From a virus, in the IMG/VR virus record IMGVR_UViG_3300032313_001910, positions 1-59,939 of that record: 59,939 nt of DNA; one strand, given 5' to 3'. The notes beneath the pieces were generated by a model. It had not been told where the DNA came from, did not search any database, and saw only the letters and a list, made by a program, of their open reading frames with translations. Positions within the stretch are counted from its first letter, which is position 1. Each line of letters starts with the position of its first letter. Below are positions 5,560 through 28,741 of this stretch, piece by piece. Position numbers and translations under genes: made by a program.

Positions 5560-7014
5560 ATGAGCAATAAAAGATTTAGTCCAAATTTTATGTCCTTGAT
5601 GGAAAGCCTACACTCTTCGGAAGAAGTTTATAACGTTCAAGAAGACAGAGAAACAAGACAAGAAAAAAGACAAGAAAGAAGAGAAAAAAGATTCGAAGAG
5701 AAAGGAAACTTAAAAGCTTTTATTCAAAATCTAGAAACTCTAAAAAGCCAGCTTATTTCTAACGTCGTAGATACAGATCATTGGATCCAACAAAATCCGG
5801 GTTCAACATTTTATCCAGGATACAAAAAAACATTCATAGATCTTCTGGAAAGAGTAGCAAAAATCATGGGAGATGCTATTTACATTTCTAAAAAGGAAGG
5901 TAAAAAACTAGAAGCAGAAGATCAAGAAGTTCTAAAAGGACTCCTAGATAACTATAATGATATCAAAGGAGAATATGAGTCTACAGCTGGTAAATATTCT
6001 AGCGGATCAACTCAAGAGGTTATCAAGGGCCAGAAAGAATTAAAATACAAAGAGATTTCTGCAAAACTTATTGCAGCGGCTAAATATTTTCAAGAGGCTG
6101 CACAAGAAAATCTTAAACTTCTAGATTCTTTAAAATCTGGAAAAGATCCCGAAGGATCAGAGGCAAAACAAGGAGAATCTGCTGGTGAAGTTAAAGTTGA
6201 ATCCCCTATAAAGAAAGGAGCAGGTTCCAAAAAAGAACCTAACGAAAAAGTAAGGGAGGTACAAAAACTCATTCTGGGTAAATTTAAAAACAACGAAAGA
6301 GTTAAAAAAAGCAGTGTTTGGAAAAACTTTGCTAAATATAAACCAGACGGAATCTTTGGAAATGCCACTGCTAGTATTATTCCTCCTTTAAAAGCCGGAT
6401 TTGGTATGAGTGACACCACATCGGACATCACACAGGATTTCATCAACAAGCTTACTGCTGTTAAAGAAGCTTTGATGGAATCAGTCATTACTAGTTTTTC
6501 GGATTTTATGAGAATTAACGAGGATTTTGATTTTGATGCCTTTGAAAAATCTGCCAAATCATCTTCAAGTGCTTCTGGTAAATCTAAATCACAGGGGTCT
6601 TCAGGTTCAGGAGAATCTAAAAAAGAAGAAACCAAAAAAGAAGAAACCAAAAATAAGGTGGTAAAATCTTATGACACGAAAGCAATCAACGAAAAAGCTT
6701 TTAAAATTTTTCTCGGCTTCAGTGGTGACTTTGACGAAGACGAGCAAGCGATTTTTGATGTTATAAAAACAATAAAGGATAAAAGAGAATTTGAACTCGT
6801 GGAAGCTAGTTTTGCCAAGATGAAAATACAGAAGCTAGACCTAAATAACAACCGGCTTTCAAATGCCAAGAGAGATTGGCAATATTTTGTAGATAAAAAC
6901 AAGGATTACAAAACATACTGGGGGCTGAGAAAAGGATGTGTCCCTGAATATTTTAATTCATCAGAGATCGCTAGATTGAATAGTTATCTTCCTGACGGGG
7001 TAGAAAAATTCTAA
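5560..7014 (+). CDS. Large putative internal head protein with PG-binding-like and annexin-like segments
   Basis: 484 residues in three blocks. The N-terminus (RFSPNFMSLMES) has a targeting-like leader with a candidate cut after L-M-E15, then an R/E/K/Q-rich helix and a helical domain to ~200. Residues ~225-285 contain VQKLI... and PDGIFGNATASIIPPLK, which fit the D-G-x-F-G-x-x-T signature of the PG_binding_1 fold. At ~305-330 a second leader-like peptide (FSDFMRINED) appears, followed by a Ser/Gly/Lys/Glu-rich linker. The C-terminal ~110 residues (GFSGDFDEDEQAIFDVI) recall the annexin-like 'G-x-D-E-x-x-I' helix repeats seen in some phage proteins. Domain calls are by eye. The protein could be cut into pieces by the prohead protease. 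Confidence 0.65.
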   Translation: MSNKRFSPNFMSLMESLHSSEEVYNVQEDRETRQEKRQERREKRFEEKGNLKAFIQNLETLKSQLISNVVDTDHWIQQNPGSTFYPGYKKTFIDLLERVAKIMGDAIYISKKEGKKLEAEDQEVLKGLLDNYNDIKGEYESTAGKYSSGSTQEVIKGQKELKYKEISAKLIAAAKYFQEAAQENLKLLDSLKSGKDPEGSEAKQGESAGEVKVESPIKKGAGSKKEPNEKVREVQKLILGKFKNNERVKKSSVWKNFAKYKPDGIFGNATASIIPPLKAGFGMSDTTSDITQDFINKLTAVKEALMESVITSFSDFMRINEDFDFDAFEKSAKSSSSASGKSKSQGSSGSGESKKEETKKEETKNKVVKSYDTKAINEKAFKIFLGFSGDFDEDEQAIFDVIKTIKDKREFELVEASFAKMKIQKLDLNNNRLSNAKRDWQYFVDKNKDYKTYWGLRKGCVPEYFNSSEIARLNSYLPDGVEKF

Positions 7015-7036
7015 ATACGAAATTTTTAATTATTTT

Positions 7037-7064
7037 AGGGGTATAAATGAAAATTTATGCCCCT
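7037..7064 (+). promoter_or_regulatory. Stem-loop with GAAA tetraloop covering the start codon of the kinase gene
   Basis: AGGGGTATAAAT (7037-7048) pairs along 12 bases with ATTTATGCCCCT (7053-7064), one pair being G-T, closed by a GAAA loop. The ATG of the downstream gene (7057-7059) lies in the 3' arm. The upstream ATG at 7047 opens a nine-codon frame that ends at 7076, overlapping the real start. A translational switch or RNA-stability element is likely; there is no T-run, so a terminator is less likely. Confidence 0.6.
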
Positions 7065-7605
7065 ATTAATTGTTGAAGGTCCGAGAAAAGCAGGTAAATC
7101 CCACTTAGTGTCAAACCAAACTGTTTGTCCGGTATTTAAGTTTGATTTTAATAAAAACTTCTCGATGTGGAACATGGGGAGAGAATCTAAGGAAACGCAC
7201 TTTTGGGGACTAGGGAAAGAAGTTATGCTTCATGAACTAAATAAAGGGGGATATCTCAGGGATAACTGGCTTCTTGTAGATAGAGGAATATTAACTAATT
7301 CTGTTTGGGGAGTTTTTCAAAAAAGAATATCCAAACAACAAGCAATTGGGGATCTGACCAAATTTTCGGATCTTGGTCTTCTAGAGAATACAAGATTTCT
7401 ACTAATCGAAGGCAAATGGGAAGAACAAAGAAAAAAAGATATCTGGGACGTGGATGACACAAGAGGAGAAGAAGAAAGATTACTTTTTTCGTCATTTTCG
7501 CAAACGCTACTTGACTTAAATGTTCCGGTTGATACTTTCCATAACCAATTCAACGAAGATAGCTTAAAAAGCTTTATTTCGCTTTTAAAGAATATTACAA
7601 ATTAA
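7057..7605 (+). CDS. P-loop kinase, thymidylate-kinase-like fold
   Basis: 182 residues. Walker A is at residues 8-15 (G-P-R-K-A-G-K-S). A D75-R76 pair in the context WLLVDRGILTNSVWG resembles the DRY/DRW region of dNMP/thymidylate kinases. Length and fold suit a nucleoside-monophosphate kinase or a related deoxynucleotide or sugar kinase, but the lid region (EEQRKKDIWDVDD) is not diagnostic of substrate. The start is enclosed in a hairpin. The gene is six bases upstream of the asparagine-synthetase-like gene, probably one transcript. Substrate cannot be told from sequence. Confidence 0.75.
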   Translation: MPLLIVEGPRKAGKSHLVSNQTVCPVFKFDFNKNFSMWNMGRESKETHFWGLGKEVMLHELNKGGYLRDNWLLVDRGILTNSVWGVFQKRISKQQAIGDLTKFSDLGLLENTRFLLIEGKWEEQRKKDIWDVDDTRGEEERLLFSSFSQTLLDLNVPVDTFHNQFNEDSLKSFISLLKNITN

Positions 7606-10555: not shown

Positions 10556-11221
10556 TTAAAAGAATTTATCGAATCTAATAACTTTTACTTCTTCCTCTTG
10601 TGGTTCATCTTCGAGCTCTGATTCATCTTCATCTTCGCTTTCTTCATCTTCGTCCTCGTCTTCATCCTCGTCTTCATCCTCGTCGTCTTCGTCCTCTTCT
10701 TCAGAATCCTCGTCTTCATCCTCATCTTCATCCTCGTCGTCTTCGTCCTCATCTTCATCCTCGTCGTCTTCGTCCTCTTCTTCATCCTCGTCGTCTTCGT
10801 CCTCTTCTTCAGAATCCTCGTCTTCATCTTCATCCTCATCTTCATCCTCGTCGTCTTCGTCCTCTTCTTCAGAATCCTCGTCTTCATCTTCATCCTCATC
10901 TTCATCCTCGTCGTCTTCGTCCTCTTCTTCAGAATCCTCGTCGTCTTCGTCCTCTTCTTCAGAATCCTCGTCGTCTTCGTCCTCTTCTTCAGAATCTTCC
11001 TCTGAGTCCTCGTCTTCTGTTTCTGTAGATTCTTCTCCAGATTCTACTTCCTCTGTGTCCTCGTCCTCTACATCTTCAGATTCTTCCTCTGAATCGTCTT
11101 GGATTTCTTCTTCTTTTTCTTCTTCCTCTTCTACTTCAAAATCGTATTTTTTACCGAAGTGTTTAAATTTTCCTTCGTTTTGTTGGAAGAATTCATTAAA
11201 GGATAAAACTTTTTTTTCCAT
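10556..11221 (-). CDS. Extremely acidic (Asp/Glu repeat) putative internal head protein
   Basis: 221 residues. After an N-terminal segment (MEKKVLSFNEFFQQNEGK) matching the targeting-like leaders, with a possible cut after Q-N-E16, residues ~30-205 are almost solely Asp, Glu and some Ser in a shuffled EEDEDDEDSEEE pattern. The end (VKVIRFDKFF) echoes the start (KVLSFNEFF). Net charge is extremely negative. Possible roles are counter-charge or spacing during head assembly, a DNA mimic delivered with the genome, or a carrier for glutamylation by the neighbouring RimK-like ligase. No homologous domain is recognised. Opposite-strand frames here are artefacts of the repeat. Confidence 0.72.
   Translation of the reverse strand: MEKKVLSFNEFFQQNEGKFKHFGKKYDFEVEEEEEKEEEIQDDSEEESEDVEDEDTEEVESGEESTETEDEDSEEDSEEEDEDDEDSEEEDEDDEDSEEEDEDDEDEDEDEDEDEDSEEEDEDDEDEDEDEDEDEDSEEEDEDDEDEEEDEDDEDEDEDEDDEDEDEDEDEDSEEEDEDDEDEDEDEDEDEDEESEDEDESELEDEPQEEEVKVIRFDKFF
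10615..11060 (-). repeat. Low-complexity GAx/GAy codon repeat encoding poly-Asp/Glu
   Basis: Plus-strand sequence is a mosaic of tcctcgtcgtcttcg, tcctcttcttcagaa and tcatcttcatcc blocks, for example the 57-base-scale block beginning cctcttcttcagaatcctcg repeated at ~10690, 10801, 10861, 10921, 10951 and 10981. It is likely prone to length variation by slippage. Confidence 0.85.
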
Positions 11222-12675: not shown

Positions 12676-13223
12676 AAAAAATATTAGATTTTAGTGGCTT
12701 TATCAATGAAAGCACAGCAGCAGGAAACAGAGACCACACTTTTGAGGTCCCCTTTAAATTTTCTTCGAATGACCCTAAATATGGGTATAATTCAAAAAGT
12801 TTTGTAGACGATCTAAAGGCTGTCTTTTTAGAAAAACCTCGAATGAAAGAAGAGATTTTAAAATTCTTAAAAGATGTAAGCATCTATAATATAGATGACT
12901 TAGGAGCAAAGCCTTTTTCTTTCGTCAGTCAGTTAATACCAGAAATAGAAAGAATTATAGAAGCTGGAGATTATAAACCAGATGCAATTATGCCGGGTGG
13001 TGCTATTCTCTTTATTAGAGATAAAAAGATAGAGGGTGGAAAAATGGCAGATTTCTATCTAAATAACAGAGGCACAAAAATAGAAGTTGTTACAGACGAC
13101 CAAAACGGTAAAGATTCTGTCCTACGTTTTCATGTAGAGGATTTTCCATACGACCAGTTTGATTTCACCAAGGAAGAAAAAGAAGAGTTGGAAGCCTTGG
13201 TAAAGGCTAAAGGATATTACTAA
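12672..13223 (+). CDS. Putative internal head protein
   Basis: 183 residues. It opens MKKILDFSGFINESTAAG, the most canonical targeting-like leader here, with a candidate cut I-N-E13|S14. The remainder is a compact mixed alpha/beta protein (GGAILFIRDKKIEGG, FYLNNRGTKIEVVTDD, VLRFHVEDFPYDQF) and does not look like a coiled coil, so it may be an effector injected with the DNA. No catalytic motif is recognised. Its last four bases overlap the convergent gene on the other strand. Confidence 0.68.
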   Translation: MKKILDFSGFINESTAAGNRDHTFEVPFKFSSNDPKYGYNSKSFVDDLKAVFLEKPRMKEEILKFLKDVSIYNIDDLGAKPFSFVSQLIPEIERIIEAGDYKPDAIMPGGAILFIRDKKIEGGKMADFYLNNRGTKIEVVTDDQNGKDSVLRFHVEDFPYDQFDFTKEEKEELEALVKAKGYY

Positions 13224-13927
13224 ATCCTGTGGAAATTATTTAGAATTATCTCTATAGATTTTTCTTTTCCTATCTCAGATCCTACCTCCATGTCTATTTT
13301 ATCCGATAGATCTGCAATTAGAATGCAATCTGAATTTTCCGAATAATCCTTGACATTTGTTTTTAGAAACCCCTTTATTTTTCTGATCTCTTTGGTGGTT
13401 TCACACTTAGGATCCAAAAGCTCGGTCATCAATAAAGCAATATTGTCTTTTTTATTGACAGTAACCATAGAAAAAAACCAGGTAAACACTCTCATATGTT
13501 CTTCCTTATTTTTTCTTATGACAAGAAATCCTTGGTCCCATAAACTGTATCCTGAACAATAGCTCTCTACATTAACCCTAGAATTATATTCGATTTCAAG
13601 CTCCTTGTTTTCTTCTATAAATTTTTCTATGAGTTCTATAGAATCAATAACTATCTGCTCGATCTCTCCAATTTTTTCTATGTTTTTGTCTAGTATGTTA
13701 TAAAAGTTATCCTTCTCTGAATCTGTCATGTTCATCATGGATCTCTGTGAAAGTTCTGTTTTCTCGTCGAAAGATTTCAGATCCCTGTAAATTGATTGCA
13801 ATTCTCTGAAATTTTTTTCAAATTCCTTTTTCTTGAAGCTTTTTTTGATTTTAACAAGCTTCGCCATAAGGATGTAGTACTTATGTTCTAGATCGATAGG
13901 ATCCTCTATAAACCAATAAGGTTTCAT
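13220..13927 (-). CDS. Hypothetical helical protein
   Basis: About 235 residues starting MKPYWFIEDPIDLEHKYYI; a TTG at 13936 in frame would add three residues but the ATG is preferred. Residues ~15-115 are a charged helical, coiled-coil-like region (KKSFKKKEFEKNFRELQSIY); the C-terminal half is mixed alpha/beta (GYSLWDQGFLVIRK, RVFTWFFSMVTV, NSDCILIADLSDKID). It has no targeting-like leader. It converges on the preceding gene with a 4-base overlap, so both stops share sequence. An AATATATAA-type motif lies 33 bases upstream. Family not recognised. Confidence 0.6.
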   Translation of the reverse strand: MKPYWFIEDPIDLEHKYYILMAKLVKIKKSFKKKEFEKNFRELQSIYRDLKSFDEKTELSQRSMMNMTDSEKDNFYNILDKNIEKIGEIEQIVIDSIELIEKFIEENKELEIEYNSRVNVESYCSGYSLWDQGFLVIRKNKEEHMRVFTWFFSMVTVNKKDNIALLMTELLDPKCETTKEIRKIKGFLKTNVKDYSENSDCILIADLSDKIDMEVGSEIGKEKSIEIILNNFHRI

Positions 13928-13960
13928 CTTCTTCAATTTCCCTGTTCATTGTTCAATATA

Positions 13961-13970: not shown

Positions 13971-14117
13971 TCGAATGAAAAATATTCGATGTTTTATGAG
14001 AAAATACAAATTGTTAATAAAAAATTTCAGGAAAGATGAAACACTCCCCAAATCCTGGACTAAAATTTTTATCTAGTAAAAACTGGGTTTTGAACTATTA
14101 TTTATCTTAAGTGACTT
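13971..14117 (+). other. AT-rich spacer, no gene recognised
   Basis: Only a short frame from 14036 (MKHSPNPGLKFLSSKNW..., 24 codons) is open, with no homology recognised. It separates the leftward hypothetical gene from the glycosyltransferase remnant and may hold the promoter of the glycan cluster, but no clear element could be assigned. Confidence 0.4.
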
Positions 14118-14298
14118 ATGTGGCCCCAGATCTTAGTTGTAGCTTACTTCACACCAAACAATTCTTACCAAAGACTCTCGCAAAATCTTAAAGAGTCTCT
14201 CCAAAGCTTTAAATTACCACACTTAATCAAACCTGTGCAAGGCTTAAGATCTTGGGATACCACCTATCTCTGAAGATCCAGAAATACGAATCACCAAC
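14118..14298 (+). pseudogene. Remnant of a glycosyltransferase gene, disrupted upstream of the HNH gene
   Basis: In frame from 14118 the translation is MWPQILVVAYFTPNNSYQRL... FKLPHLIKPVQGLRSWDTTYL, then TGA at 14271. This aligns with the start of the intact glycosyltransferase at 14921 (IIAYCTNDPYYLGLSKSF, ENFNLPYHLDIIESLGDW). After the stop, the same frame gives RNTNHQRD, resembling HRNTNQKSN at the C-terminus of that intact enzyme; the 14 bases agaaatacgaatca are shared. The simplest reading is a related glycosyltransferase gene with the middle deleted, leaving only its two ends directly before the endonuclease gene. Confidence 0.6.
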
Positions 14299-14301
14299 GG
14301 G

Positions 14302-14931
14302 ATGAAGAAAAAAAGAACATATACGGAAGAGCAAAAGCTAAAACAAAAAGAGTCGATAGAATTGTGGAAGATAGCCAATAAAAAAGAGCTAAAGGAGAAA
14401 AACAAACTATATAACGAAAAAAATAAAGAAAAAATATCAATGTACCAAAAAGAGTATAGAGAATTAAATAAGGATAAAATAAGGGAGAAAAGAAAAGAAT
14501 ATTTTAAGGAATATAGAATATTAAATAAAGATAAAATAGAAAAAAGAAGAAAATTAAATTCTAAAAGGTATAATAAAGTTGGAAGAGAATCGACACTTAC
14601 AAGAAGAAAGAAAGATCCTGTATTAGATCTTCGATATAAAATATCTAAATTAATATGTATTTCTTTAAAAAATGGAGGTTATACAAAAAGATCTAAAACA
14701 TATCAAATATTAGGTTGTAGCTATGAAGAATTTAAAACATACATACAAAGCAAATTCTCCGAGAATATGTCATGGGAAAATCACGGAGAATGGCATTTAG
14801 ATCATAAAATCCCAGCATCATCCGCCAAAGACGAGGATACACTAATTAGATTAAATCATTATTCAAATTTTCAGCCATTATGGGCAAAAGATAATATTAG
14901 AAAAGGAAATAAATTAAACTGTGAAATATAA
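14302..14931 (+). CDS. HNH homing-type endonuclease
   Basis: 209 residues. The N-terminal ~95 are a very basic repetitive helix (NKDKIREKRKEYFKEYRILN), typical of DNA-binding arms of phage HNH enzymes. The C-terminal HNH core is visible: WHLDHKIPASSAKDED, then LNHYSNFQPLWAKDNIRKGNK, giving the H-D-H and N...N...K signature residues. A free-standing mobile endonuclease cleaves intron-less or variant alleles to promote its own spread. It begins right after a glycosyltransferase remnant and its 3' end overlaps the start of the next glycosyltransferase by 11 bases, consistent with insertion into this locus. Confidence 0.9.
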   Translation: MKKKRTYTEEQKLKQKESIELWKIANKKELKEKNKLYNEKNKEKISMYQKEYRELNKDKIREKRKEYFKEYRILNKDKIEKRRKLNSKRYNKVGRESTLTRRKKDPVLDLRYKISKLICISLKNGGYTKRSKTYQILGCSYEEFKTYIQSKFSENMSWENHGEWHLDHKIPASSAKDEDTLIRLNHYSNFQPLWAKDNIRKGNKLNCEI

Positions 14932-15541
14932 AATCATAGCATATTGTACGAATGATCCTTATTATTTAGGACTTTCTAAAAGTTTTGTAAAATCCTGTGA
15001 GAATTTCAATCTACCGTATCATTTAGATATCATAGAATCATTAGGCGACTGGTGTTTAAATACTCATTGGAAAGCAAAGTTTATTTATAAATGTATGAAT
15101 ACCATCGATTCTGAATATCTTTTATACGTGGACGTTGACGCAGTCTTTAAAGCTTATCCTCAAATCTTTGAAACATTAGATTGTGATATTGCTTATAGGA
15201 CGGAGAACTTTAGATGGAGAGCTGATGAAGCCCTTTCGGGCACAGTTTATTTCAGAAACAACGAAAAGGTTAAAAGGATGGTGGATCGGTGGATCAATCT
15301 TAACGAAGCCACTCCAGCAGAAAGAATGAAACCCGAAACATGGGAACAAAAAAATATGCAAAGGGCACAGAGAGAATTTAGTGACCTTGTTTATTATAAT
15401 CTTCCCCCAGAGTACACATTTATCACGGATCACACTAAAACAATGTATCCCGGATTATTTCCAGTCATTGAACATTTTCAAGCTTCTAGAGAGGTTCATA
15501 GAAATACGAATCAAAAATCCAATTTAAGAATAAGAAGATAG
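14921..15541 (+). CDS. Glycosyltransferase, GT-A fold (nucleotide-diphospho-sugar transferase)
   Basis: 206 residues. Start is GTG at 14921, inside the end of the HNH gene. The Rossmann-like N-terminus IIAYCTNDPYYLGLSKSF is followed by the metal-binding D71-V-D73 in LLYVDVDAVF, as in the nucleotide-diphospho-sugar transferase group. The C-terminal half contains GTVYFRNNEKVK and the conserved-looking TMYPGLFPVIEHFQASR. Acceptor and donor are unknown. First intact gene of a 21-gene rightward glycan cluster; two bases separate it from the next gene. Confidence 0.82.
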   Translation: MKYKIIAYCTNDPYYLGLSKSFVKSCENFNLPYHLDIIESLGDWCLNTHWKAKFIYKCMNTIDSEYLLYVDVDAVFKAYPQIFETLDCDIAYRTENFRWRADEALSGTVYFRNNEKVKRMVDRWINLNEATPAERMKPETWEQKNMQRAQREFSDLVYYNLPPEYTFITDHTKTMYPGLFPVIEHFQASREVHRNTNQKSNLRIRR

Positions 15542-15542
15542 T

Positions 15543-16277
15543 ATGCGTCTTAAATATGCCGTTGTTAGTTCCGACTCTAATCCTGAATACCTAGATTTTT
15601 GGCCTTATGTGGCAGCATCATGGCAAAGAATCGGAATAGAACCCGTTCTTGTTTATATTGATTCTAAAGGGCCTGACCCAAACGTGGCAGAATATGGCAG
15701 AACAGAATATCTAGAATCTATTCCTGAATGGAGTATAATTCAGCAAGCACAATCCATCAGATTTTGGGCAGCAAGGCTACTCGATGCACCTTTTATTATC
15801 TCGGATATGGACATGCTTCCTATATCTAGGGATTATTTTGAAAGCGGAGCTTCCCAGATAGGTGAAAGCGGGATAGTCTCGTATTCTTCTGATATTATTA
15901 AGTATAGATGGTATCGCACTAATCCACAGTACCCTATGTGTTATCTTGCGGGGGATCCGCAGAGCTTCGTAGATTTACTAGACCTAAATGACACGGATCA
16001 CAAAGAGTTTCTTCGTAGATTAATGAGAATGGGTATAAGATTTGGGACAGATCAAAAGTTTTTTTATAACCAGACCCTTGCTAAATCCAAGTATCTCATT
16101 AAACATCTAGAAAGGGGATGGATAGAAGAAAAATATGCTTCTAAAAGACTGGATAAGGTGAACTGGCCAAAAACGGGGTATAATGTAGAGGAATATATAG
16201 ATTGTCATTTACCAAGACCATACTCATCAAATAGAGAAATATGTGACGAACTTTTTAAGAAATTAGGAATTAAATAA
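15543..16277 (+). CDS. Glycosyltransferase-like, GT-A fold
   Basis: 244 residues. The N-terminus LKYAVVSSDSNPEYLDFWPY is followed by a DxD-type motif D88-M-D90 (FIISDMDMLPISRDYF), the usual Mn2+/nucleotide-sugar site. Downstream segments (MCYLAGDPQSFVDLL, FGTDQKFFYNQTL) fit a family of small phage and bacterial GT-A enzymes whose acceptors are unknown. It shares its last base with the next start. Probably cytoplasmic, with no signal or membrane segment. Confidence 0.75.
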   Translation: MRLKYAVVSSDSNPEYLDFWPYVAASWQRIGIEPVLVYIDSKGPDPNVAEYGRTEYLESIPEWSIIQQAQSIRFWAARLLDAPFIISDMDMLPISRDYFESGASQIGESGIVSYSSDIIKYRWYRTNPQYPMCYLAGDPQSFVDLLDLNDTDHKEFLRRLMRMGIRFGTDQKFFYNQTLAKSKYLIKHLERGWIEEKYASKRLDKVNWPKTGYNVEEYIDCHLPRPYSSNREICDELFKKLGIK

Positions 16278-16921
16278 TGATCCCCAAATTAATATCTTTT
16301 TATACTGGTGACCCCTATTATGCTTCTAAAGCATCTGAGCTTAAAAACAGGTGTTATTCTCTTGGAATAGAGGTGGAAATATCAGAGGTCAGAAATCAAG
16401 GGGATTATTGGAAAAACACTCTGTATAAGCCAGTTTTTATTTATAAAAATCTCATTGAGAAAAAAGAGGATTTAATCTGGATAGATGTAGACACAGAGAT
16501 TGTTTCTAAAAATAGTGAGATGTTTAATTGGACATCGGATCTTTATTTTGCTTCACACACTGGTGAGATGGACGGTATAAAGGCTTCTCCTATAGGATTT
16601 AGATTTAATGATCGCACTCTGAGTTTTGTAGATGAGTGGAAAAGATGTTGTGAATTGAAAATTTCTTCAGGTGATGTGGATTTTGATCATGACGTTCTAA
16701 AGTATGATATTCTTCCACAATTTAAAGGGAGGGTTTCTCTACAAATAATGAAAGGAAATCTAGAGGCAAAAGAATTTACCAACGGCAACATAATTAATAA
16801 TGGTAATTCTAGGGTCCACGGAAAAGCACAACAAACCAGGCACGTTCTAAGAAAAAATAATTCTAGAAGTTCTTTGTTTGAGTGTTTAAAAAAAGAAGAT
16901 TTTATTTATGAATCCAAATAG
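16277..16921 (+). CDS. Glycosyltransferase, GT-A fold
   Basis: 214 residues. Same architecture as the enzyme at 14921: LISFYTGDPYYASKASELKN, KPVFIYKN, then D70-V-D72 in IWIDVDTEIV. The acceptor-side half includes ASPIGFRFNDRTLSFVDEWK, a pattern shared with the next gene (ASPIFFRNTPQSKALIESWE), so the two look like paralogues. Donor sugar unknown. The next gene begins 14 bases before its stop. Confidence 0.8.
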   Translation: MIPKLISFYTGDPYYASKASELKNRCYSLGIEVEISEVRNQGDYWKNTLYKPVFIYKNLIEKKEDLIWIDVDTEIVSKNSEMFNWTSDLYFASHTGEMDGIKASPIGFRFNDRTLSFVDEWKRCCELKISSGDVDFDHDVLKYDILPQFKGRVSLQIMKGNLEAKEFTNGNIINNGNSRVHGKAQQTRHVLRKNNSRSSLFECLKKEDFIYESK

Positions 16922-17732
16922 AAGAAGGCAAATAGTAGTGTCTCGTCAAAGGGAAAGAAATGTTATAGATGGGGGCTCCCCTAGACCTATGCCTCCTATA
17001 GAGACTCAATCTAAACAACAAGAACAAATCATGCAAAACATTTTTTCTCCCTTGAAACCCCATAGACAAAGAGAGGTTGTTAAACAATGGGAAAACGTAA
17101 CAGGAAAATCAGTAATTTTTATAACCTTTGTTTCTGATCCTATAGGTTCTAATTTTTATTCAAGCCGAGTTCCTTCCCTTCTTTCTAAACTTGTCGATCT
17201 GGGTTATGATTACATCGTCAGGCAATATCCCTCCGATAGACACTATTTTCAAAACTGTTGTTTTAAGCCAGTTTTTATAAAAGAAATCATGGAGAAATAC
17301 GACAAGAATCTTGTTTGGATCGATGGCGACACTAACCTTAAAAAATCTCTGGATCTTTTCACTTTAGATCAAGATTACGATGTTGGTCTTGTTTCCTACA
17401 CCCATGATATTAGTTCCTTTGTTGCCTCCCCTATATTCTTCAGGAACACACCACAATCTAAAGCACTTATAGAATCGTGGGAATCACATTGTACATCTAA
17501 AATAGAAAATGGAATATGTGAATTAGACCACGATGCTATTAAGCATTCTATAATTCCGCAGTTCAGGAGCTCTCTAAGAATCAAATTAAATAATAACGAT
17601 TATCATAATGGGGAGGTATTAGAGAATGTTAATTCAGATGTTCCTGAAAAAGGAAGGGTGTTACAGGAGATGGTTCCTATAAACGCAAGAAGACCTTTCA
17701 ACCTAACTAACAAAGATTTTATAATTGTATGA
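16908..17732 (+). CDS. Glycosyltransferase, GT-A fold, with basic N-terminal extension
   Basis: 274 residues. The first ~60 are an Arg/Gln-rich, probably disordered extension (MNPNRRRQIVVSRQRERN) absent from its paralogue at 16277. The catalytic core follows: VIFITFVSDPIGSNFYSSR, KPVFIKEIM, and D139-G-D141 in LVWIDGDTNL. The C-terminal half matches the neighbour (ASPIFFRNTPQ, LDHDAIKHSIIPQF), indicating gene duplication. It overlaps the fucosyltransferase-like gene by four bases (ATGA). The basic tail could bind nucleic acid or a partner protein; unknown. Confidence 0.8.
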   Translation: MNPNRRRQIVVSRQRERNVIDGGSPRPMPPIETQSKQQEQIMQNIFSPLKPHRQREVVKQWENVTGKSVIFITFVSDPIGSNFYSSRVPSLLSKLVDLGYDYIVRQYPSDRHYFQNCCFKPVFIKEIMEKYDKNLVWIDGDTNLKKSLDLFTLDQDYDVGLVSYTHDISSFVASPIFFRNTPQSKALIESWESHCTSKIENGICELDHDAIKHSIIPQFRSSLRIKLNNNDYHNGEVLENVNSDVPEKGRVLQEMVPINARRPFNLTNKDFIIV

Positions 17733-18574
17733 AAAAATTAAAAACAAACTGGGCTCCTTTTCCTATCGAATTTTCTTCCTGCTCTAATCTTAGACCTAAA
17801 GGGTTTGAATGGTCAAGAACCGAGGGCATAGCAACCGTTTGGATAGACACTAGTATTCCGAATCATCAGGGCCCACCATCAGGAAACTTTGGGTGGTTCT
17901 GTGAATCTTCCGAGGTTTTGCCCGCTCTTAAATCCCAGCTTCTTAGCCAGACTGAAAGATTTAAAAGGCATTTCCAACACATTTTCACGTGTGATAATGA
18001 ACTAATAAACAGAGATCCTAGTTTTTTCCTTTTTAATCCACCAGGCTCAAACCTTCCTTGGACTAAGCCACAAGATTTTAGAATCCCAGAGAAAACCAAA
18101 CTCTGTTCTATGATCTCTAGTCCCAAAGACATGACTTCCGGACACAAGCTTAGAATTTCTATTGCTGAGAGCCTAAAAGGAAAGGTTGATCTTTTTGGTG
18201 GTGCAGCAGGGAGTGAAAGGTCAGGCCAAGGAACGGGTCCTAACGGAGATTGGTGGAGATCCAAGGAAGATTCTCTTTCCTCTTATATGTTTAGCGTGGT
18301 CATTGAAAATGCTTCTTATGGGGATTACTACACAGAAAAAATCACAGATTGTTTTGCATTGGGCGTTATCCCTATCTACTGGGGGAGTCCGTTGATACAC
18401 GAGAGGTTTAATAGGGATGGAATAATTTTATGGGACCATAATTTTGATCTCAACTCTTTAAGCACAGATCTATACCATTCAAAAATCGAAGCAGTAAAAG
18501 ATAATCTGGACAGAGTGAAAAATTTAGTTTCTGCAGATGATCTGCTTTTTAAAAAAATAGAGATGTTTATATAA
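17729..18574 (+). CDS. GT10-type fucosyltransferase-like protein
   Basis: 281 residues. The region ~185-230 (FSVVIENASYGDYYTEKITD, then CFALGVIPIYWGSP) matches the GT10 alpha-1,3/1,4-fucosyltransferase donor-binding signature, in which the E of 'FxLAFENS', the YxTEK and the G-x-x-P-I-Y-x-G contact GDP-fucose. GT10 enzymes transfer L-fucose from GDP-L-fucose, and this cluster also encodes both enzymes that make that donor (26228, 27147), which supports the call. No membrane anchor is visible. It overlaps the preceding gene by four bases and ends two bases before the next. Confidence 0.85.
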   Translation: MKKLKTNWAPFPIEFSSCSNLRPKGFEWSRTEGIATVWIDTSIPNHQGPPSGNFGWFCESSEVLPALKSQLLSQTERFKRHFQHIFTCDNELINRDPSFFLFNPPGSNLPWTKPQDFRIPEKTKLCSMISSPKDMTSGHKLRISIAESLKGKVDLFGGAAGSERSGQGTGPNGDWWRSKEDSLSSYMFSVVIENASYGDYYTEKITDCFALGVIPIYWGSPLIHERFNRDGIILWDHNFDLNSLSTDLYHSKIEAVKDNLDRVKNLVSADDLLFKKIEMFI

Positions 18575-18576
18575 AA

Positions 18577-19203
18577 ATGGAAAAAATATTAATAACGCCA
18601 TATTTTAAAACACAGGATTCAAACAGAAATATTGAATTAGATAGGGTTCTTTCTAGAAATCTAGATTCTAATCTTTTTGAGAAAATTATACTTTTCTGTG
18701 ATCCTGGTGCCATTCCACCTATCACAGATCAAAAGATTGAAGTGATCCAAACCAAACACAGATCAAAATATTGCGATTTCTTTAAGGAAGGAAACAAGCA
18801 CACTAATAAGATTGTGGTTGTAGCAAACAGTGATATATTTTTTGATGAAACCCTAAATTTTGCAGAAAAGTATCTAGTGGAAGAAAAAAGAGTTTTAGCT
18901 TTAACCAGATATGAATATGTTTTACAAAATAATGGCACATACTCTTCCCATATGCAAATGGGATGTGACAGCCAGGATTCATGGATATTTTTACCTGCTT
19001 TAGATACAGGAAACATGGATATTTCTTTTGGCTTAGGTGTTCCTGGGTGTGACAATAGATTGGCTTTTGAACTATCTAAAAAATATGAAGTGATAAATCC
19101 TAGTTTATCTATAAAAACTTACCATGTGCACGAAAGTAATTTTCGAACATATGATCCAAATAAAAGATTAGTCGGAGAATATTTACAGATACATATACAA
19201 TAA
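18577..19203 (+). CDS. Glycosyltransferase-like protein
   Basis: 208 residues. The N-terminus ILITPYFKTQDSNRNIELDR leads to a probable DxD-equivalent N84-S-D86 (VVANSDIFFDETL), followed by ALTRYEYVLQNNG, a D-S-Q-D-S-W-I-F segment and a conserved-looking GLGVPGCDNRLAFEL. This order resembles small GT-A-like enzymes of capsule clusters. The specificity is unknown. It lies in the same operon, two bases from each neighbour. Confidence 0.68.
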   Translation: MEKILITPYFKTQDSNRNIELDRVLSRNLDSNLFEKIILFCDPGAIPPITDQKIEVIQTKHRSKYCDFFKEGNKHTNKIVVVANSDIFFDETLNFAEKYLVEEKRVLALTRYEYVLQNNGTYSSHMQMGCDSQDSWIFLPALDTGNMDISFGLGVPGCDNRLAFELSKKYEVINPSLSIKTYHVHESNFRTYDPNKRLVGEYLQIHIQ

Positions 19204-19205
19204 AA

Positions 19206-19850
19206 ATGAATAAATTAGATTTAAAAAGAGTTACTCTTTTCTGTTTTGACGGGAGGGAGGAAGATAAGGAAAGAACCGCTAGATATTATAAAATATTAGA
19301 TTATATGTTATCTAGGGTAGAATTTCATGATGTAAAAATGTTTTGCACATTCGATTTTAAATTTCCCGGGGTCGAGATTTTAAATACTAGACCAGTTAAT
19401 ATAGGATATTATTCTGAATTTTGTGTTAAAAGATTAAATTCATTCATAAAAAGTGACTATTGTCTAATTTTTCAAGATGATGGGTTTATTCTAAATCCTC
19501 ATTTATGGGACGATGAATTTTTAGATTATGATTACATAGGTGCTCCCTGGCCACTTTATATAGGTTGGCCTAAAGAAGGGCAGCAAGTGGGAAATGGTGG
19601 ATTTTCTTTAAGAAGCAAAAATTTTCTAGAGGTTTCTTCTACTCTTCCCCCTACAACTGCAAACGAGGACACTTATATTTTAAATCAAAATCGAGAACAT
19701 CTTGATGTACATGGTATTAAGATAGCTCCTGTTGAGGTTGCTAGAAAATTTGCTGTTGAATTTGAACTAGACAAAGATCACAATATTTCTTCCTGTTTTG
19801 GCTTTCACTCAAAAAAGTATCTTGGTGATGCTATATCATATATAAAATAA
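19206..19850 (+). CDS. DUF5672-type glycosyltransferase
   Basis: 214 residues. The core pattern of the DUF5672 group is clear: CLIFQDDGFILNPHLWDDEF with the metal-binding D91-D92, YDYIGAPWP, VGNGGFSLRSKNFLE, NEDTYI, and IAPVEVARKFAVE near the end with SCFGFHS. The family is found in polysaccharide and lipopolysaccharide clusters; donor and acceptor are not defined. Ten bases separate it from the aminotransferase gene, where an A/T-rich stretch occurs. Confidence 0.82.
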   Translation: MNKLDLKRVTLFCFDGREEDKERTARYYKILDYMLSRVEFHDVKMFCTFDFKFPGVEILNTRPVNIGYYSEFCVKRLNSFIKSDYCLIFQDDGFILNPHLWDDEFLDYDYIGAPWPLYIGWPKEGQQVGNGGFSLRSKNFLEVSSTLPPTTANEDTYILNQNREHLDVHGIKIAPVEVARKFAVEFELDKDHNISSCFGFHSKKYLGDAISYIK

Positions 19851-19860
19851 AAAATAAAAG

Positions 19861-20496
19861 ATGTCAAAGGGAGTTTATAAAATTACGGAAGATTTTGAAA
19901 AAGCATTATCCGATTATACTGGTGCACCCTATGTTATTACAGTTGATAATGCAAGTAATGCACTTTTTTTAGCTCTAAAGTATGAAAAAATAGAGGGTAA
20001 AGAAATAACTATACCCTCTAGAACATACCCATCTGTTCCGTGTGAAATAATACATGCAGGAGGGAGAGTTAACTTTAAAAAAACCAAAGGAAAAACCATA
20101 AAGGGTGCTTATCAGCTAGAACCTACCAACGTGTGGGATTCTGCATTAAGGTTTACTAATGATATGTACATACCAGGATCTCATATGTGTATTTCTTTTA
20201 CTGGACCATATAAGCACTTTAAACTAAGTAAAGGAGGTGCTATATTGACAGACAACGAGGAAGCTTATTTTTGGTTTAAAAGAGCTAGATATTCAGGTAG
20301 AAGAGAATGTTCGTATCATGAAGATCATTTTGATATGCTCGGGTGGAATTTTTACATGATGCCAGAATTAGCAGCAAGAGGATTGCTAATGATAAATCAA
20401 TTTTATAAAGACGGCAAGCCACTAAGTAATGAGGATCTTGAACTACCTTATCCAGATCTATCTAAATTCACCATTTATACTAATAATGAGAAATAA
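19861..20496 (+). CDS. Short DegT/DnrJ/EryC1/StrS-family sugar aminotransferase
   Basis: 211 residues against ~370 for complete family members. Present are the N-terminal cofactor region (PYVITVDNASNALFLALKY), IPSRTYPSVPCEIIHAGG, and the region that carries the PLP lysine (SFTGPYKHFKLSKGGAIL) followed by RYSGRRECSYHEDHFDMLGW and MPELAARGLL. The C-terminal small domain is missing. Full-length enzymes transfer an amino group to keto-sugars bound to a nucleotide. This could be a minimal active form, a subunit, or a non-catalytic relic; length alone cannot tell. Eleven bases overlap with the next gene. Confidence 0.8.
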   Translation: MSKGVYKITEDFEKALSDYTGAPYVITVDNASNALFLALKYEKIEGKEITIPSRTYPSVPCEIIHAGGRVNFKKTKGKTIKGAYQLEPTNVWDSALRFTNDMYIPGSHMCISFTGPYKHFKLSKGGAILTDNEEAYFWFKRARYSGRRECSYHEDHFDMLGWNFYMMPELAARGLLMINQFYKDGKPLSNEDLELPYPDLSKFTIYTNNEK

Positions 20497-21193
20497 TATA
20501 CTTTGTGTAATTAATAGCTTTTATAATTATGAACATATAGCTGTTTTCTTCGATAGTATTTATGTGGATTATATAGATTACGTTGTGCTTGAAAATTACA
20601 GTAAAAACAGCGATCAGATTAAGGATTACTTCAAAGGAAAAAGAATAATTACACACTTAAGGTCTGAAGAAAATGTAACTCACGGCACAATGGATTATTT
20701 TTTAGAAAATTATAAAGAATTAATAAAGGAATACGAGTATCTTATTTTAACTGACGCTGACCTTTTAGTTGAAGATATTGATTCTTATATAGATGAGGCT
20801 AAATCTGTATTAGATATGGAAAAAGTTATGGTTTGTGGTATATCTCTTTGCCTTAATAATTTACCGCTAGATCATCATCCAGAATCTATCAATTGGGTTC
20901 CTAAAGGCGTGGTATATAATAAATATATAATTTCTGTTACTGGGACACATATGTTATTAATTAAAAATAAGGATCTAAATGTATTATTTGAATTGAAAAA
21001 TATAATAGATTCTTCTCTTTGGGAAAAGGTCTGTGAAAAAGATGGCCTATGGGTTAGAACATTAAAAAACAAAGCTAAACATTTAACCTGGGATTATTAT
21101 TATCCTGGTAACGAGTATTATGAATACAAAAGAAATAATGAATGGGTACAAAAATTACATAACAAAAAACCCGAAATAATAAAATTGAGATGA
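20486..21193 (+). CDS. Glycosyltransferase-like, GT-A fold
   Basis: 235 residues from the ATG at 20486; a longer frame from 20429 lies within the preceding gene and is not preferred. ILCVINSFYNYEHIAVFFDS leads to D90-A-D92 (YLILTDADLLVED), a DxD site. The later part (PKGVVYNKYIISVTGTHMLL, LTWDYYYPGNEYYEYK) is typical of small unclassified GTs. It overlaps the WbqC gene by four bases. Codon use is more A/T-rich from here to ~24160 than in the neighbouring genes, suggesting a separately acquired block. Confidence 0.7.
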   Translation: MRNNILCVINSFYNYEHIAVFFDSIYVDYIDYVVLENYSKNSDQIKDYFKGKRIITHLRSEENVTHGTMDYFLENYKELIKEYEYLILTDADLLVEDIDSYIDEAKSVLDMEKVMVCGISLCLNNLPLDHHPESINWVPKGVVYNKYIISVTGTHMLLIKNKDLNVLFELKNIIDSSLWEKVCEKDGLWVRTLKNKAKHLTWDYYYPGNEYYEYKRNNEWVQKLHNKKPEIIKLR

Positions 21194-21861
21194 GGATAGG
21201 TATAATGCAGCCTTATTTTTTACCATATATTGGATATTTTCAATTGATAGATTCTGTAGATACCTATGTTAATCTAGACCATGTATCCTTCATGAAAAGG
21301 AGTTATATGGTTAGAAATAAATTAAAGAATGAGGTCGGCATAAATTTAAGTGTAATAGGAGGTAGTCAAAACAAAAAGTGCAAGGAAGTTAACATATATT
21401 TTGATGATAAGTGGATAAAAAAATTTAAAACGTCCATTAATTATTTATATTCTAAAGAAGATAATTACTCATCGATAATGGATACTATAGTTAATCCTAT
21501 GATAGATGATTTAAGTCTTAATGTATCGGATTTTAATTTTAGTTCTGTAAAAAGAATATGTCACTATTTGGATATAAATAAGAATTTTATAGATTCTTCT
21601 GGGGGTGTAACCGAAAATAAGAAAGGTCAGGGATTAATAGATATATGCAAAAAAAATAACTCTAGTTCGTATGTAAATGCTATAGGAGGAATGAATCTCT
21701 ATAATAAGGAAGAGTTCAAAAAATCTGGCATAGAACTTTATTTCTGTAAGATGAACAATGACATAGATCTAGATGATCCGTATCTATCGATATTACATCA
21801 GTTGTTTGTTTATTCAAAAGAACATTTAAAGAATCAAATAAAAAAATATAAATTGATATGA
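21190..21861 (+). CDS. WbqC-family protein
   Basis: 223 residues. The N-terminus MRIGIMQPYFLPYIGYFQLI, then VNLDHVSFMKRSYMVRNKLK, is the diagnostic WbqC pattern (PF08889). WbqC proteins occur in O-antigen and capsule clusters of Bacteroidota and Proteobacteria, often beside DegT aminotransferases as here, and are thought to act in acylation of amino-sugars; the mechanism is not firmly established. The gene overlaps both neighbours by four bases. Confidence 0.9.
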   Translation: MRIGIMQPYFLPYIGYFQLIDSVDTYVNLDHVSFMKRSYMVRNKLKNEVGINLSVIGGSQNKKCKEVNIYFDDKWIKKFKTSINYLYSKEDNYSSIMDTIVNPMIDDLSLNVSDFNFSSVKRICHYLDINKNFIDSSGGVTENKKGQGLIDICKKNNSSSYVNAIGGMNLYNKEEFKKSGIELYFCKMNNDIDLDDPYLSILHQLFVYSKEHLKNQIKKYKLI

Positions 21862-22568
21862 ACCACGAGGGAAAATTTGAATATATTAAATTTCAGAAAT
21901 TGAGAAATAGCTATAAGGATGGCATTGATAATCTATCTAAAATGGATTTTAATTTTCAAGAGATCGTAGAGGATTTTCCTAGATTTTCTGGCCATATGAG
22001 TATAGGAAGATATTTAACACTATACGAACTTTATAAAAAAACATCTGGTATATCCGGTCATATTGCAGAAGTTGGGACTTACAAGGGTACTTCTTTATTG
22101 TGGTTCACTAAGCTAGTTCAATTATTTGAGCCTAATTCACTTACTCAAGTTCATGGATTTGATTGGTTTAAAGGGACTGGGGAAGATTCGGTTGAACTTA
22201 AAATCGAAAAAGGCAGCTATTCTTATGAATATGAAGATCTTCTTAATGTTATAAAATATCAGGGATTAGAAAATAATTGCTTTGTACACAAATTAAATGT
22301 TCTAACGGAGCTGGAAGAGTTCTTTAGTAAGAATCCGCATTTTTATTTTAAATGTGTATTCTTAGATGCTGGATTTTATGATGTTGTTAAAAAGTCCATA
22401 GAAATACTTTGGCCTAGACTTAATAAAGGGGGGATATTAATATTGGATCAATTTGGACACGAGCTATCCCCTGGTGAATCTATGGCAGTTAAAGAATTAC
22501 TTCCTGATGAAAAGATAGAGACATTAAATAATTCTTGGATGCCTACCGCTTATATTATTAAAAAATAG
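21858..22568 (+). CDS. TylF/MycF-like O-methyltransferase
   Basis: 236 residues. The S-adenosylmethionine motif I (GHIAEVGTYKGTS, residues 67-79) is followed by VHGFDWFKGTG and by FKCVFLDAGFYDVVKKSIE and GGILILDQFG, matching the TylF macrocin-O-methyltransferase family, which methylates sugar hydroxyls and needs Mg2+. In this cluster it probably caps a sugar residue. It is five bases before the acyltransferase gene. Confidence 0.83.
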   Translation: MNHEGKFEYIKFQKLRNSYKDGIDNLSKMDFNFQEIVEDFPRFSGHMSIGRYLTLYELYKKTSGISGHIAEVGTYKGTSLLWFTKLVQLFEPNSLTQVHGFDWFKGTGEDSVELKIEKGSYSYEYEDLLNVIKYQGLENNCFVHKLNVLTELEEFFSKNPHFYFKCVFLDAGFYDVVKKSIEILWPRLNKGGILILDQFGHELSPGESMAVKELLPDEKIETLNNSWMPTAYIIKK

Positions 22569-22572
22569 AGTT

Positions 22573-23244
22573 ATGAAAAAAGTTATAGTATTCGGAGTTC
22601 TTGATACTGCAGAATTAGCACATTATTACCTTACTAATGATTCTCCTTATGAAGTAGAAGCTTTTACTATTAACAAGGATTACATTAAGGAAAGTTCATT
22701 CAAACCTAGGGGTAGTGAAAAAGAATATCCAGTAGTTCCCTTTGAAGAGCTTGAAAAAATATACCCACCAGAGGACTATTATTTATTTTGTCCTATGACT
22801 GGAATTAAAATGAATACGCTCAGGAAAAAAATATATCAAGAGGGTAAAGATAAGGGATATGAATATATTTCTTACATTTCTTCAAAAGCAACGGTCTTTA
22901 ATAATCAAATAGGAGAAAATTGTTTCATATTAGAGGATAACACTATACAGCCCTTTACCATAATAGGAAATAACGTAGTATTATGGAGCGGTAATCATAT
23001 AGGACACCATGGAGTTATAGAGGATCATGTTTTTTTTACATCCCATGTAGTTATGTCTGGACATTGTCATATAAAAGAAAGGGCATGGATAGGGGTTAAC
23101 TCTACAATAAGAGACTTTACTACAATAGGAGAGGGATGTCTCATAGGAATGGGATCTCTCGTAACAAAAAATACCGAGGACGGAGCCTTTTATCTGGGAT
23201 CTCCGTCTAAAAAACAAGATAGAATAGCTATAGATGTATATTAA
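22573..23244 (+). CDS. NeuD/PglD-type sugar acyltransferase (hexapeptide repeat)
   Basis: 223 residues. The N-terminal ~95 form a Rossmann-like sugar-binding domain (KKVIVFGVLDTAELAHYYL). The C-terminal half is a left-handed beta-helix with I-G-x-x hexapeptides (QIGENCFILEDNTI, AWIGVNSTI, TIGEGCLIGMGSLV). A His cluster N141-H-I-G-H-H fits the catalytic His used for acetyl or formyl transfer from acetyl-CoA-type donors. With the DegT and WbqC genes upstream it suggests an N-acylated amino-sugar. The next gene begins 11 bases before its end. Confidence 0.84.
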   Translation: MKKVIVFGVLDTAELAHYYLTNDSPYEVEAFTINKDYIKESSFKPRGSEKEYPVVPFEELEKIYPPEDYYLFCPMTGIKMNTLRKKIYQEGKDKGYEYISYISSKATVFNNQIGENCFILEDNTIQPFTIIGNNVVLWSGNHIGHHGVIEDHVFFTSHVVMSGHCHIKERAWIGVNSTIRDFTTIGEGCLIGMGSLVTKNTEDGAFYLGSPSKKQDRIAIDVY

Positions 23245-24881: not shown

Positions 24882-24890
24882 AATCAGATT

Positions 24891-25598: not shown

Positions 25599-25601
25599 AC
25601 T

Positions 25602-28734: not shown

Positions 28735-28741
28735 AGAGAAT

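What the first reader, a model, noticed from the sequence alone, without database searches (positions are those of the whole stretch)
14118..14931. Glycosyltransferase remnant with an HNH endonuclease directly behind it
Upstream of the HNH gene is an in-frame fragment similar to the N-terminus of the intact neighbour glycosyltransferase, and right after its stop the frame matches that neighbour's C-terminus (RNTN; the 14 bases agaaatacgaatca shared). This suggests a paralogue lost its middle at a point where a homing endonuclease gene became fixed. The HNH gene overlaps the intact GT gene, so the site sits at the junction of two paralogues.
Basis: partly seen in the sequence, partly recalled or inferred. 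Interest (0 to 1): 0.5.

Follow-up and report, generated by a model that had tools for sequence, protein, structure and literature searches.

The report
Homing nuclease that rebuilds its target
A selfish DNA-cutting gene has landed inside a phage sugar-transferase gene, leaving the old front end behind as a dead fragment while bringing a new front end with it, so the gene stays whole; yeast and fungal mitochondria have elements that work in a similar way.

Summary
The fragment is real: 14118-14273 encodes 51 aa homologous to the first ~47 aa of a glycosyltransferase (GT), followed by an HNH gene (14302-14931) and a complete GT (14921-15541). The paralogue reading is wrong. In 24 of 25 related IMG/VR contigs this locus holds one GT and no HNH beside it, and the fragment matches that GT's start. 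The 25th, L001, repeats the window's layout with its own native fragment. The fragment is therefore the displaced 5' end of the single resident GT; the downstream GT has a different 5' end (first ~50 codons 33-43% identical to ten natives, which share 72%; 90% shared by window and L001). L001 is 90.8% identical to an HNH-less relative over 5.5 kb, ending inside its fragment; a foreign block of ~1.45 kb follows. An independent isolate set (Flavobacterium elemo phages; HNH in 5 of 68 records) shows a related HNH with a swapped 5' end on an unrelated downstream gene, flanks nearly all 100% identical. Best reading: a free-standing homing endonuclease that moves with a diverged replacement 5' end of its target, the mirror image of yeast WHO elements and fungal mORFs. 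The 14-base C-terminal match is weak. Cleavage was not tested.

The parts
13220..13936 (-). divergently transcribed neighbour gene, marker on the left side of the locus
   Evidence: found left of the GT in 25 of 25 IMG/VR contigs
13990..14117 (+). native upstream region of the resident GT (conserved CTAAAATTTTTA..GTAA element), now in front of fragment, HNH and GT
   Evidence: aligns with the upstream DNA of 18 HNH-less relatives
14118..14273 (+). displaced native 5' end of the glycosyltransferase gene (51 codons plus stop; native-like to about codon 46-51)
   Evidence: 41-53% identical to the start of ten natives, 25% to the window's own downstream GT; same position as the native start
14274..14301 (+). 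short leader between fragment and HNH; holds the 14-base match 14280-14293
   Evidence: no flanking similarity to the GT C-terminus; no unusual RNA fold (z -0.09 for 14220-14301)
14302..14931 (+). HNH-type endonuclease gene, 209 aa, with WHxDH..P...N.QPxW...N motif; putative homing endonuclease
   Evidence: H165, D167, H168, P171, N189, P192, W194, N198 invariant in 28 of 28 aligned proteins; PHROG 1035 'endonuclease VII' E 2e-9; model pLDDT 92 with helical N-terminal part and C-terminal strand-strand-helix end
14760..15124 (+). block shared with L001 at about 92% DNA identity: HNH 3' part plus GT codons 1-68
   Evidence: 60-nt bins 88-95% from 14760 to 15119, then 65%
14921..15541 (+). complete GT-A glycosyltransferase (206 aa) with replaced 5' part (about 14921-15124) and native-like remainder
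   Evidence: identity profile, third-position divergence, trees, model mean pLDDT 83 (residues 98-104 and 190-206 under 50) and PDB GT-A hits
15420..15541 (+). second block shared with L001 (GT C-terminus)
   Evidence: 60-nt bins 90% and 97%
15543..16277 (+). next gene (gt2), right-hand marker of the locus
   Evidence: found after the GT in 17 of 25 contigs; in L001 the foreign tract ends about half-way through its homologue

Best explanation
The HNH gene is a free-standing homing endonuclease whose mobile unit includes a diverged copy of the 5' end of its target gene. The target was the single glycosyltransferase gene at this locus. When the unit entered, by repair of a break copied from an HNH-bearing phage, the HNH was placed inside the GT gene. 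The resident 5' end (upstream region, start codon, about 46 codons) was left upstream as a dead fragment, and the downstream GT was made whole again by the incoming 5' end, whose start codon overlaps the HNH stop. The incoming 5' end differs so much from the native one that the restored gene should no longer carry the cut site (inferred) and should not easily recombine with the displaced fragment (inferred). Shown: one native GT in relatives, native origin of the fragment, a foreign 5' end, two carriers with HNH plus that 5' end, recent entry in L001, and a 5'-end swap behind a related HNH in elemo phages. Inferred: that the HNH cuts the native GT (perhaps near codons 34-70) and that this drove the transfer.
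For: 24 of 25 contigs have one GT, its match starting 155-174 nt from the divergent neighbour, and no HNH beside it; the 25th is L001 (682 nt). The 25 fall into 18 clusters at 97% GT identity, L001 being one. The fragment matches the native GT start in 24 of 24, also in upstream DNA in the 18 aligned. GT alignment columns 1-52: window-to-native protein identity 33-43% against 72% among ten natives; columns 81 on: 68-77% against 76.5%. DNA trees of 18 rows: the branch to window+L001 is about 1.2 changes per site for the 5' part (1.15 on its side of the midpoint root), 0.11 for the rest, where both fall on the natives' side of a 97/95 split. Window to L001 third-position divergence 0.20 / 0.55 / 0.11 for 5' part / middle / 3' part. 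L001 is 90.8% identical to HNH-less L012 over 5,554 columns ending at L001 5548, inside its fragment. L012 and L009 are 84-96% alike through gt2 while L001 is 67-84% to L012 from 6601 to about 7000, then 90-98% to 7300: a foreign tract of ~1.45 kb that begins at the fragment. Elemo phages: HNH in 5 of 68 records (4 isolates and a RefSeq copy), 63 of 68 match the HNH-less allele at 99% or more. Between L133 and HNH-less L132 all 50-nt bins are 100% except 901-1034 (90-94%) and the HNH junction; the first 14 codons of the 56-aa gene behind the HNH are replaced in L133, about 39 in L134, all of it in L099. The restored GT gives a good GT-A model.
Against: No cleavage, homing or expression was measured. 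The window has no close HNH-less relative, so its own tract edges are seen only against L001 and distant natives. Maximum chi-square breaks for the carrier-native pairs scatter from column 144 to 390 and one (window-L018) lies at 592 with 65 of 5000 permutations as extreme; some native pairs are uneven too. The HNH 5' part is only 55-78% identical between window and L001, which one recent transfer of a whole unit does not explain. In L001 the whole GT and half of gt2 are foreign, not just the 5' end. L001's HNH reading frame is broken. An AU test on the 5' part did not reject keeping the five outgroup rows as one clade (p 0.463), so topology alone proves nothing there; the case rests on branch length. 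Of 64 HNH loci tested (window included) only the window showed a detectable fragment upstream, and the elemo leader shows none. No donor of the new 5' end was found.
Confidence: 0.74

Rival explanations
1. Paralogue remnant: two tandem GT genes existed, the upstream one lost its middle where an HNH gene became fixed.
For: Fragment is GT-like and upstream of a complete GT; 14 shared bases with the GT C-terminus, 3 of 3000 shuffles as good.
Against: 24 of 24 HNH-less contigs have one GT here whose start the fragment matches; the fragment is closer to native starts (41-53%) than to the window's own GT (25%); L001 has no C-terminal piece between fragment and HNH; no flanking similarity around the 14 bases.
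Confidence: 0.06
2. Passenger HNH: ordinary mosaic recombination, not HNH-driven homing, replaced the GT region and happened to bring a neighbouring HNH gene.
For: GT genes in these phages vary a lot (L012-L002 30-nt bins 57-97%); L001's tract covers the whole GT and half of gt2; no cleavage data.
Against: The left edge in L001 falls abruptly at the fragment/HNH junction; in elemo isolates HNH presence and the swapped 5' end coincide in the three alleles compared, against otherwise identical DNA in L133; the tracts extend outward from the HNH.
Confidence: 0.15
3. The fragment is kept as a small translated peptide with a function of its own (for example coupling translation into the HNH).
For: Open for 51 codons under the native upstream region in the window.
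Against: In L001 native similarity ends at codon ~33 and the reading frame at codon 37, so length and end are not kept.
Confidence: 0.04
4. Split or spliced gene: an intron or trans-splicing joins fragment and GT body.
For: Fragment plus GT body would make a native-like protein.
Against: No Rfam match in the window at gathering thresholds; the downstream GT is complete by itself and is modelled as a GT-A fold.
Confidence: 0.01

Closest known systems
WHO elements of Torulaspora and Lachancea yeasts (Coughlan et al. 2020, PMC7282813; abstract and passages seen)
   Same: Homing endonuclease gene beside a whole host gene; incoming terminus of the host gene replaces the resident one; the displaced native end is left as a fragment; proposed resistance by allelic difference; decayed nuclease copies.
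   Different: WHO replaces the 3' end of FBA1 and is an intein-derived nuclease with zinc fingers; here it is the 5' end of a GT, an HNH nuclease, and a phage. Homology of the nucleases is not claimed.
Mobile ORFs (mORFs) of fungal mitochondria: Allomyces atp6, Glomus atp6/atp9/cox2/nad3 (Beaudet et al. 2013, PMC3630166; passages seen)
   Same: Endonuclease ORF carries a foreign terminus of the target gene and makes a hybrid gene; native terminus displaced.
   Different: C-terminal, LAGLIDADG or GIY-YIG, mitochondrial; here N-terminal, HNH, phage.
Free-standing homing endonucleases of T4-type phages: SegF, SegG, MobE (review PMC2988022; passages seen)
   Same: Nuclease gene without intron, near its target gene, spreading with co-conversion of flanking sequence; some overlap neighbouring ORFs.
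   Different: In the passages seen they sit between genes or split a gene (Aeh1 nrdA); no displaced duplicate 5' end with a regenerated target is described there.
HNH endonucleases of lactococcal Skunavirus (PMC12724721; passages seen)
   Same: Free-standing, intron-less phage HNH genes; 56 of 268 truncated.
   Different: Classed as HmuI-, PacI- or GVE2-like; no replaced target 5' end described in the passages seen.

Membership tests
Free-standing phage homing endonuclease (intronless homing) | nuclease gene present in some, absent at the same site in other close relatives | tested here: met
   1 of 25 IMG/VR contigs plus the window; elemo 5 of 68 records
Free-standing phage homing endonuclease (intronless homing) | no self-splicing intron or intein around it | tested here: met
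   no Rfam match at gathering thresholds; separate complete ORFs
Free-standing phage homing endonuclease (intronless homing) | flanking co-conversion tracts | tested here: met
   L001 tract ending about 7000; elemo tracts of differing length
Free-standing phage homing endonuclease (intronless homing) | cuts the nuclease-less allele, not the carrier allele | not testable with these tools
   needs protein or crosses
WHO-type (target-end-replacing) homing element, by mechanism | displaced native end of the target gene beside the nuclease gene | tested here: met
   window and L001; not seen in elemo nor in the 63 other HNH loci tested
WHO-type (target-end-replacing) homing element, by mechanism | host gene whole, with a terminus of foreign origin and discordant history of its two parts | tested here: met
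   AU test on the 5' part alone not significant (p 0.463)
[quoted passage not shown]
   no such domain in Pfam scans of the window protein; HNH-type motif at the C-terminus instead
DHHRN / Endo VII homing endonucleases (F-CphI, PMC6083498; abstract and section 7 read) | DHDH core flanked by CX2-4C and CX2C, plus R and N | tested here: not met
   window protein has WHLDHKIP without the second H and without the flanking cysteine pairs, despite the PHROG label 'endonuclease VII'
Pfam HNH (PF01844) | match to the model | tested here: inconclusive
   window protein 0 families; 1 of 28 aligned relatives matches at E 0.0015

The most novel reading that the evidence does not exclude
Some phage HNH genes are natural home-and-rescue drives. 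Each unit is a nuclease plus a cut-resistant, diverged replacement of its target gene's 5' end. It invades the target gene, keeps it working and can leave the old 5' end as debris, so target genes in phages are repeatedly rebuilt at one end. The unit has been fitted to unrelated targets (a GT here, a 56-aa gene in elemo phages).
Probability: 0.42. Interest if true: 0.75.

Novelty: new variant of a known kind. Interest (0 to 1): 0.55.

Why it matters
It would extend target-end-replacing homing, known from yeast nuclei and fungal mitochondria, to phages and to the 5' end, and it explains how a nuclease can sit inside a useful gene without splicing and without destroying it. It also gives a source of mosaic phage genes and of short orphan fragments that annotation may take for small genes. 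The elemo isolates (HNH-plus and HNH-minus phages of one Flavobacterium host, with nearly identical DNA around the site) make it directly testable by crosses.

Tried and rejected
Paralogue with lost middle: rejected on 24 of 24 HNH-less relatives. C-terminal remnant: the 14 bases have no flanking similarity; I also considered that RNTN is the native ..KNTH.. stretch after a small insertion (by eye on the alignment), equally unproven; left open. Intron or structured RNA: no Rfam match in the window, leader fold z -0.09. Donor of the new 5' end: the N-terminal query in viral contigs returned only L001's contig; the whole GT in the phages collection gave 2 records, best 39.5% in LR756500, and in that record the window's 5' part is no closer (35%) than a native's (41%); genome contigs gave one MAG contig, L139, with a native-type GT and no HNH hit. 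Generality: one search kept 80 of 103 HNH-encoding loci; of 64 loci with a usable downstream gene (window included) only the window showed an upstream fragment, but that search is weak when fragment and new 5' end differ as much as here. More distant HNH genes in KpV52, 455E52-1 and 207E29.1 are followed by genes on the other strand, so they overlap no downstream start; in Roscha1 the gene overlaps the next one by 17 nt. PDB searches by sequence and by fold gave nothing useful for the HNH. PADLOC: 0 families. Paper searches whose listings (titles and starts of abstracts; one search showed 12 of 20) pointed me to no phage case of a displaced target end; passages seen in PMC10448857, PMC2988022, PMC12724721. 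This covers only the held open-access library and these words, so absence from print is not shown. Rows left out of counts: identity and tree figures use ten and sixteen natives of 24 (near-duplicates dropped); the last, 10-base bin (7301 on) was not used.

Full report
What is there. Reading the window gives, on the + strand, a 51-codon ORF 14118-14273 whose product resembles a GT N-terminus, an HNH-motif ORF 14302-14931 (209 aa), and a complete GT ORF 14921-15541 (206 aa, GTG start) that begins inside the last 11 bases of the HNH gene. To the left lies a divergent gene (13220-13936, - strand), to the right further sugar-related genes. The major capsid homologue at 983-2782 (PHROG 138 major head protein) marks the window as tailed-phage DNA; it is a virus record of 59,939 bases.

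Relatives. A search with the GT gave 18 viral contigs and one with an alignment gave 25; these fall into 18 clusters at 97% GT identity, L001 being one of them. In 24 of 25 the divergent gene is followed by a single GT, its match starting 155-174 nt later, and there is no HNH hit beside it (one, L126, has a 31% HNH-like match about 3 kb upstream on the other strand). In 24 of 24 the window fragment matches the start of that GT. The 25th, L001 (a 148-kb contig), has the window's layout: 5' GT fragment, HNH, whole GT, with 682 nt between neighbour and GT. A contig from a Bacteroidetes MAG (L139) also has the single-GT form.

The fragment is the native 5' end. The DNA upstream of the fragment, its start codon and its first ~46 codons align with the native gene start in the 18 HNH-less relatives aligned. 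At protein level the window fragment is 41-53% identical to ten natives and 25% to the window's own downstream GT; L001's fragment is 46-68% identical to the natives. L001 is 90.8% identical to HNH-less L012 over 5,554 aligned columns ending at L001 position 5548, inside the fragment, which starts at 5475. So in L001 the event is recent, later than the split from L012.

The downstream GT has another 5' end. In alignment columns 1-52 (about the first 50 codons) the window GT is 33-43% identical to ten natives, which are 72% identical to each other; in columns 53-80 48-67% against 74%; from column 81 on 68-77% against 76.5%. Maximum chi-square tests give 0 or 1 of 5000 permutations as extreme for 8 of the 9 carrier-native pairs tested, with breaks scattered from DNA column 144 to 390; the ninth (window-L018) gave 65 of 5000 with its break at 592. 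For five control pairs of HNH-less relatives the figures were 2, 54, 236, 511 and 824 of 5000, so natives are not free of uneven divergence; the two lowest break at the variable C-terminus. In DNA trees of 18 rows the branch to window+L001 is about 1.2 changes per site for the 5' part and 0.11 for the rest, where the two lie on the natives' side of a 97/95 split. An AU test on the 5' part that held five outgroup rows together gave p 0.463, so branch length, not topology, carries the point. Window and L001 share the HNH 3' part and GT codons 1-68 at 88-95% per 60-nt bin, drop to 65% at 15120-15179, where the VDVDA codons begin, vary between 58 and 87% up to 15419, and rise to 90 and 97% over the last 120 bases of the GT; third-position divergence is 0.20, 0.55 and 0.11. 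The HNH 5' part is only 55-78% identical between the two, not far above the left flank. Window and L001 are not particularly close elsewhere (RimK-like gene 81%, others 80.6-82.8% except 56% in the outgroup L014 and L015). The shared block therefore moved between lineages, but not in one single recent step covering the whole unit.

Extent in L001. L012 and L009 are 84-96% identical to each other from 6601 to 7300 (L001 numbering), while L001 is 67-84% identical to L012 up to about 7000 and 90-98% from there. The foreign block runs from the fragment (5549) to about 7000, roughly 1.45 kb: HNH, the whole GT, half of gt2. Its left edge is abrupt. L001's HNH frame is broken: residues 55-122 of the window protein are missing and the frame shifts at a run of A, which could be decay or an assembly error.

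An independent case. The nearest HNH by DNA among annotated phages is in Flavobacterium elemo phages (67%). At that locus 68 records match; 5 carry the HNH (MT497068 and its RefSeq copy, MT497116, MT497123, MT497080) and 63 match the HNH-less allele at 99% or more. The HNH lies between a dihydroorotase-labelled gene and a 56-aa gene, and in L133 and L134 its end overlaps the start of that gene by 14 nt, as in L099. Comparing L133 with HNH-less L132, the 50-nt bins are 100% identical except about 130 bases left of the insertion (90-94%) and the first 14 codons of the 56-aa gene, which are replaced; in L134 the replacement reaches codon 39, and in L099 it covers the gene and runs beyond. There is no displaced fragment here, but a 103-nt leader with a terminator-like hairpin (z -2.65, 2 of 200 shuffles as stable). 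So a relative of this HNH, with a different target, travels with a new 5' end of the gene behind it.

The proteins. The restored GT gives a model with mean pLDDT 83 (residues 98-104 and 190-206 under 50) and matches GT-A enzymes, first the PBCV-1 capsid glycosyltransferase (E 4.5e-9), so the hybrid looks like a complete enzyme. In the HNH protein H165, D167, H168, P171, N189, P192, W194 and N198 are invariant in 28 of 28 aligned proteins; the model is confident (pLDDT 92), with a long helical N-terminal part and a strand-strand-helix end, as expected of an HNH domain (recalled). Foldseek found no PDB match at E 0.001 and Pfam gives the window protein no family. PHROG calls it endonuclease VII (E 2e-9), but the DHDH core and cysteine pairs described for the Endo VII / DHHRN group in PMC6083498 (section 7 read) are absent.

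Mechanism. The simplest account is homing: the HNH cuts the native GT, repair copies HNH and neighbouring DNA from a carrier, and the GT is restored by the carrier's 5' end, while the resident 5' end stays behind upstream. The incoming end is far enough from the native one to be resistant to the enzyme, as proposed for WHO elements (PMC7282813). Cleavage and resistance are inferred. Native DNA is best conserved at codons 1-10 and 46-55 (eleven natives), and the window fragment's native-like part ends at about codon 46; this makes codons 46-55 a candidate site, no more.

The 14 bases. A remnant of a GT C-terminus remains possible, for example from whatever preceded the HNH in the donor, but is not needed.

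Comparison with what is known. Free-standing phage homing endonucleases with co-conversion are well known (PMC2988022). Elements that carry a replacement end of the target and displace the native one are known as WHO elements (3' end of FBA1) and as mORFs of fungal mitochondria (C-termini of atp6, atp9, cox2, nad3). The present case works like these but at the 5' end, with an HNH enzyme, in a phage. In the open-access papers searched (listings only, plus passages of three phage papers) nothing pointed to a phage example. I rate it a new variant of a known kind.

Noticed in passing
48379-49584 (+): A second putative homing endonuclease (401 aa, PHROG 3339, E 2e-19), just before a gene at 49619-49990; not examined for a replaced neighbour end.
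   Followed up: no
10556-11221 (-): Protein made largely of acidic repeats (SEEEDEDDED...), 221 aa.
   Followed up: no
58731-59800 (+): Two neighbouring proteins built of repeated SLPPGVRFQNQG-type units, probably a duplicated gene pair.
   Followed up: no
15543-30081 (+): Long run of sugar-related genes (GT family 10 match at 17729-18574; others judged by eye, recalled); the part downstream of gt2 differs between relatives.
   Followed up: partly
L001:5588-6008: HNH copy lacking residues 55-122 with a frame break at a run of A: decayed copy or assembly error.
   Followed up: partly
L100:3518-4129 (MT497067): Another HNH relative (43% to the window protein) at a different place in an elemo phage that lacks the first one.
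   Followed up: no
L099:4604-5272 (MT497068): In this HNH-plus elemo isolate the 561-nt gene that follows the 56-aa gene in L132 and L133 is not annotated, next to the long conversion tract.
   Followed up: partly
LR756502.1: A 642-kb uncultured phage record with four places encoding relatives of this HNH.
   Followed up: no
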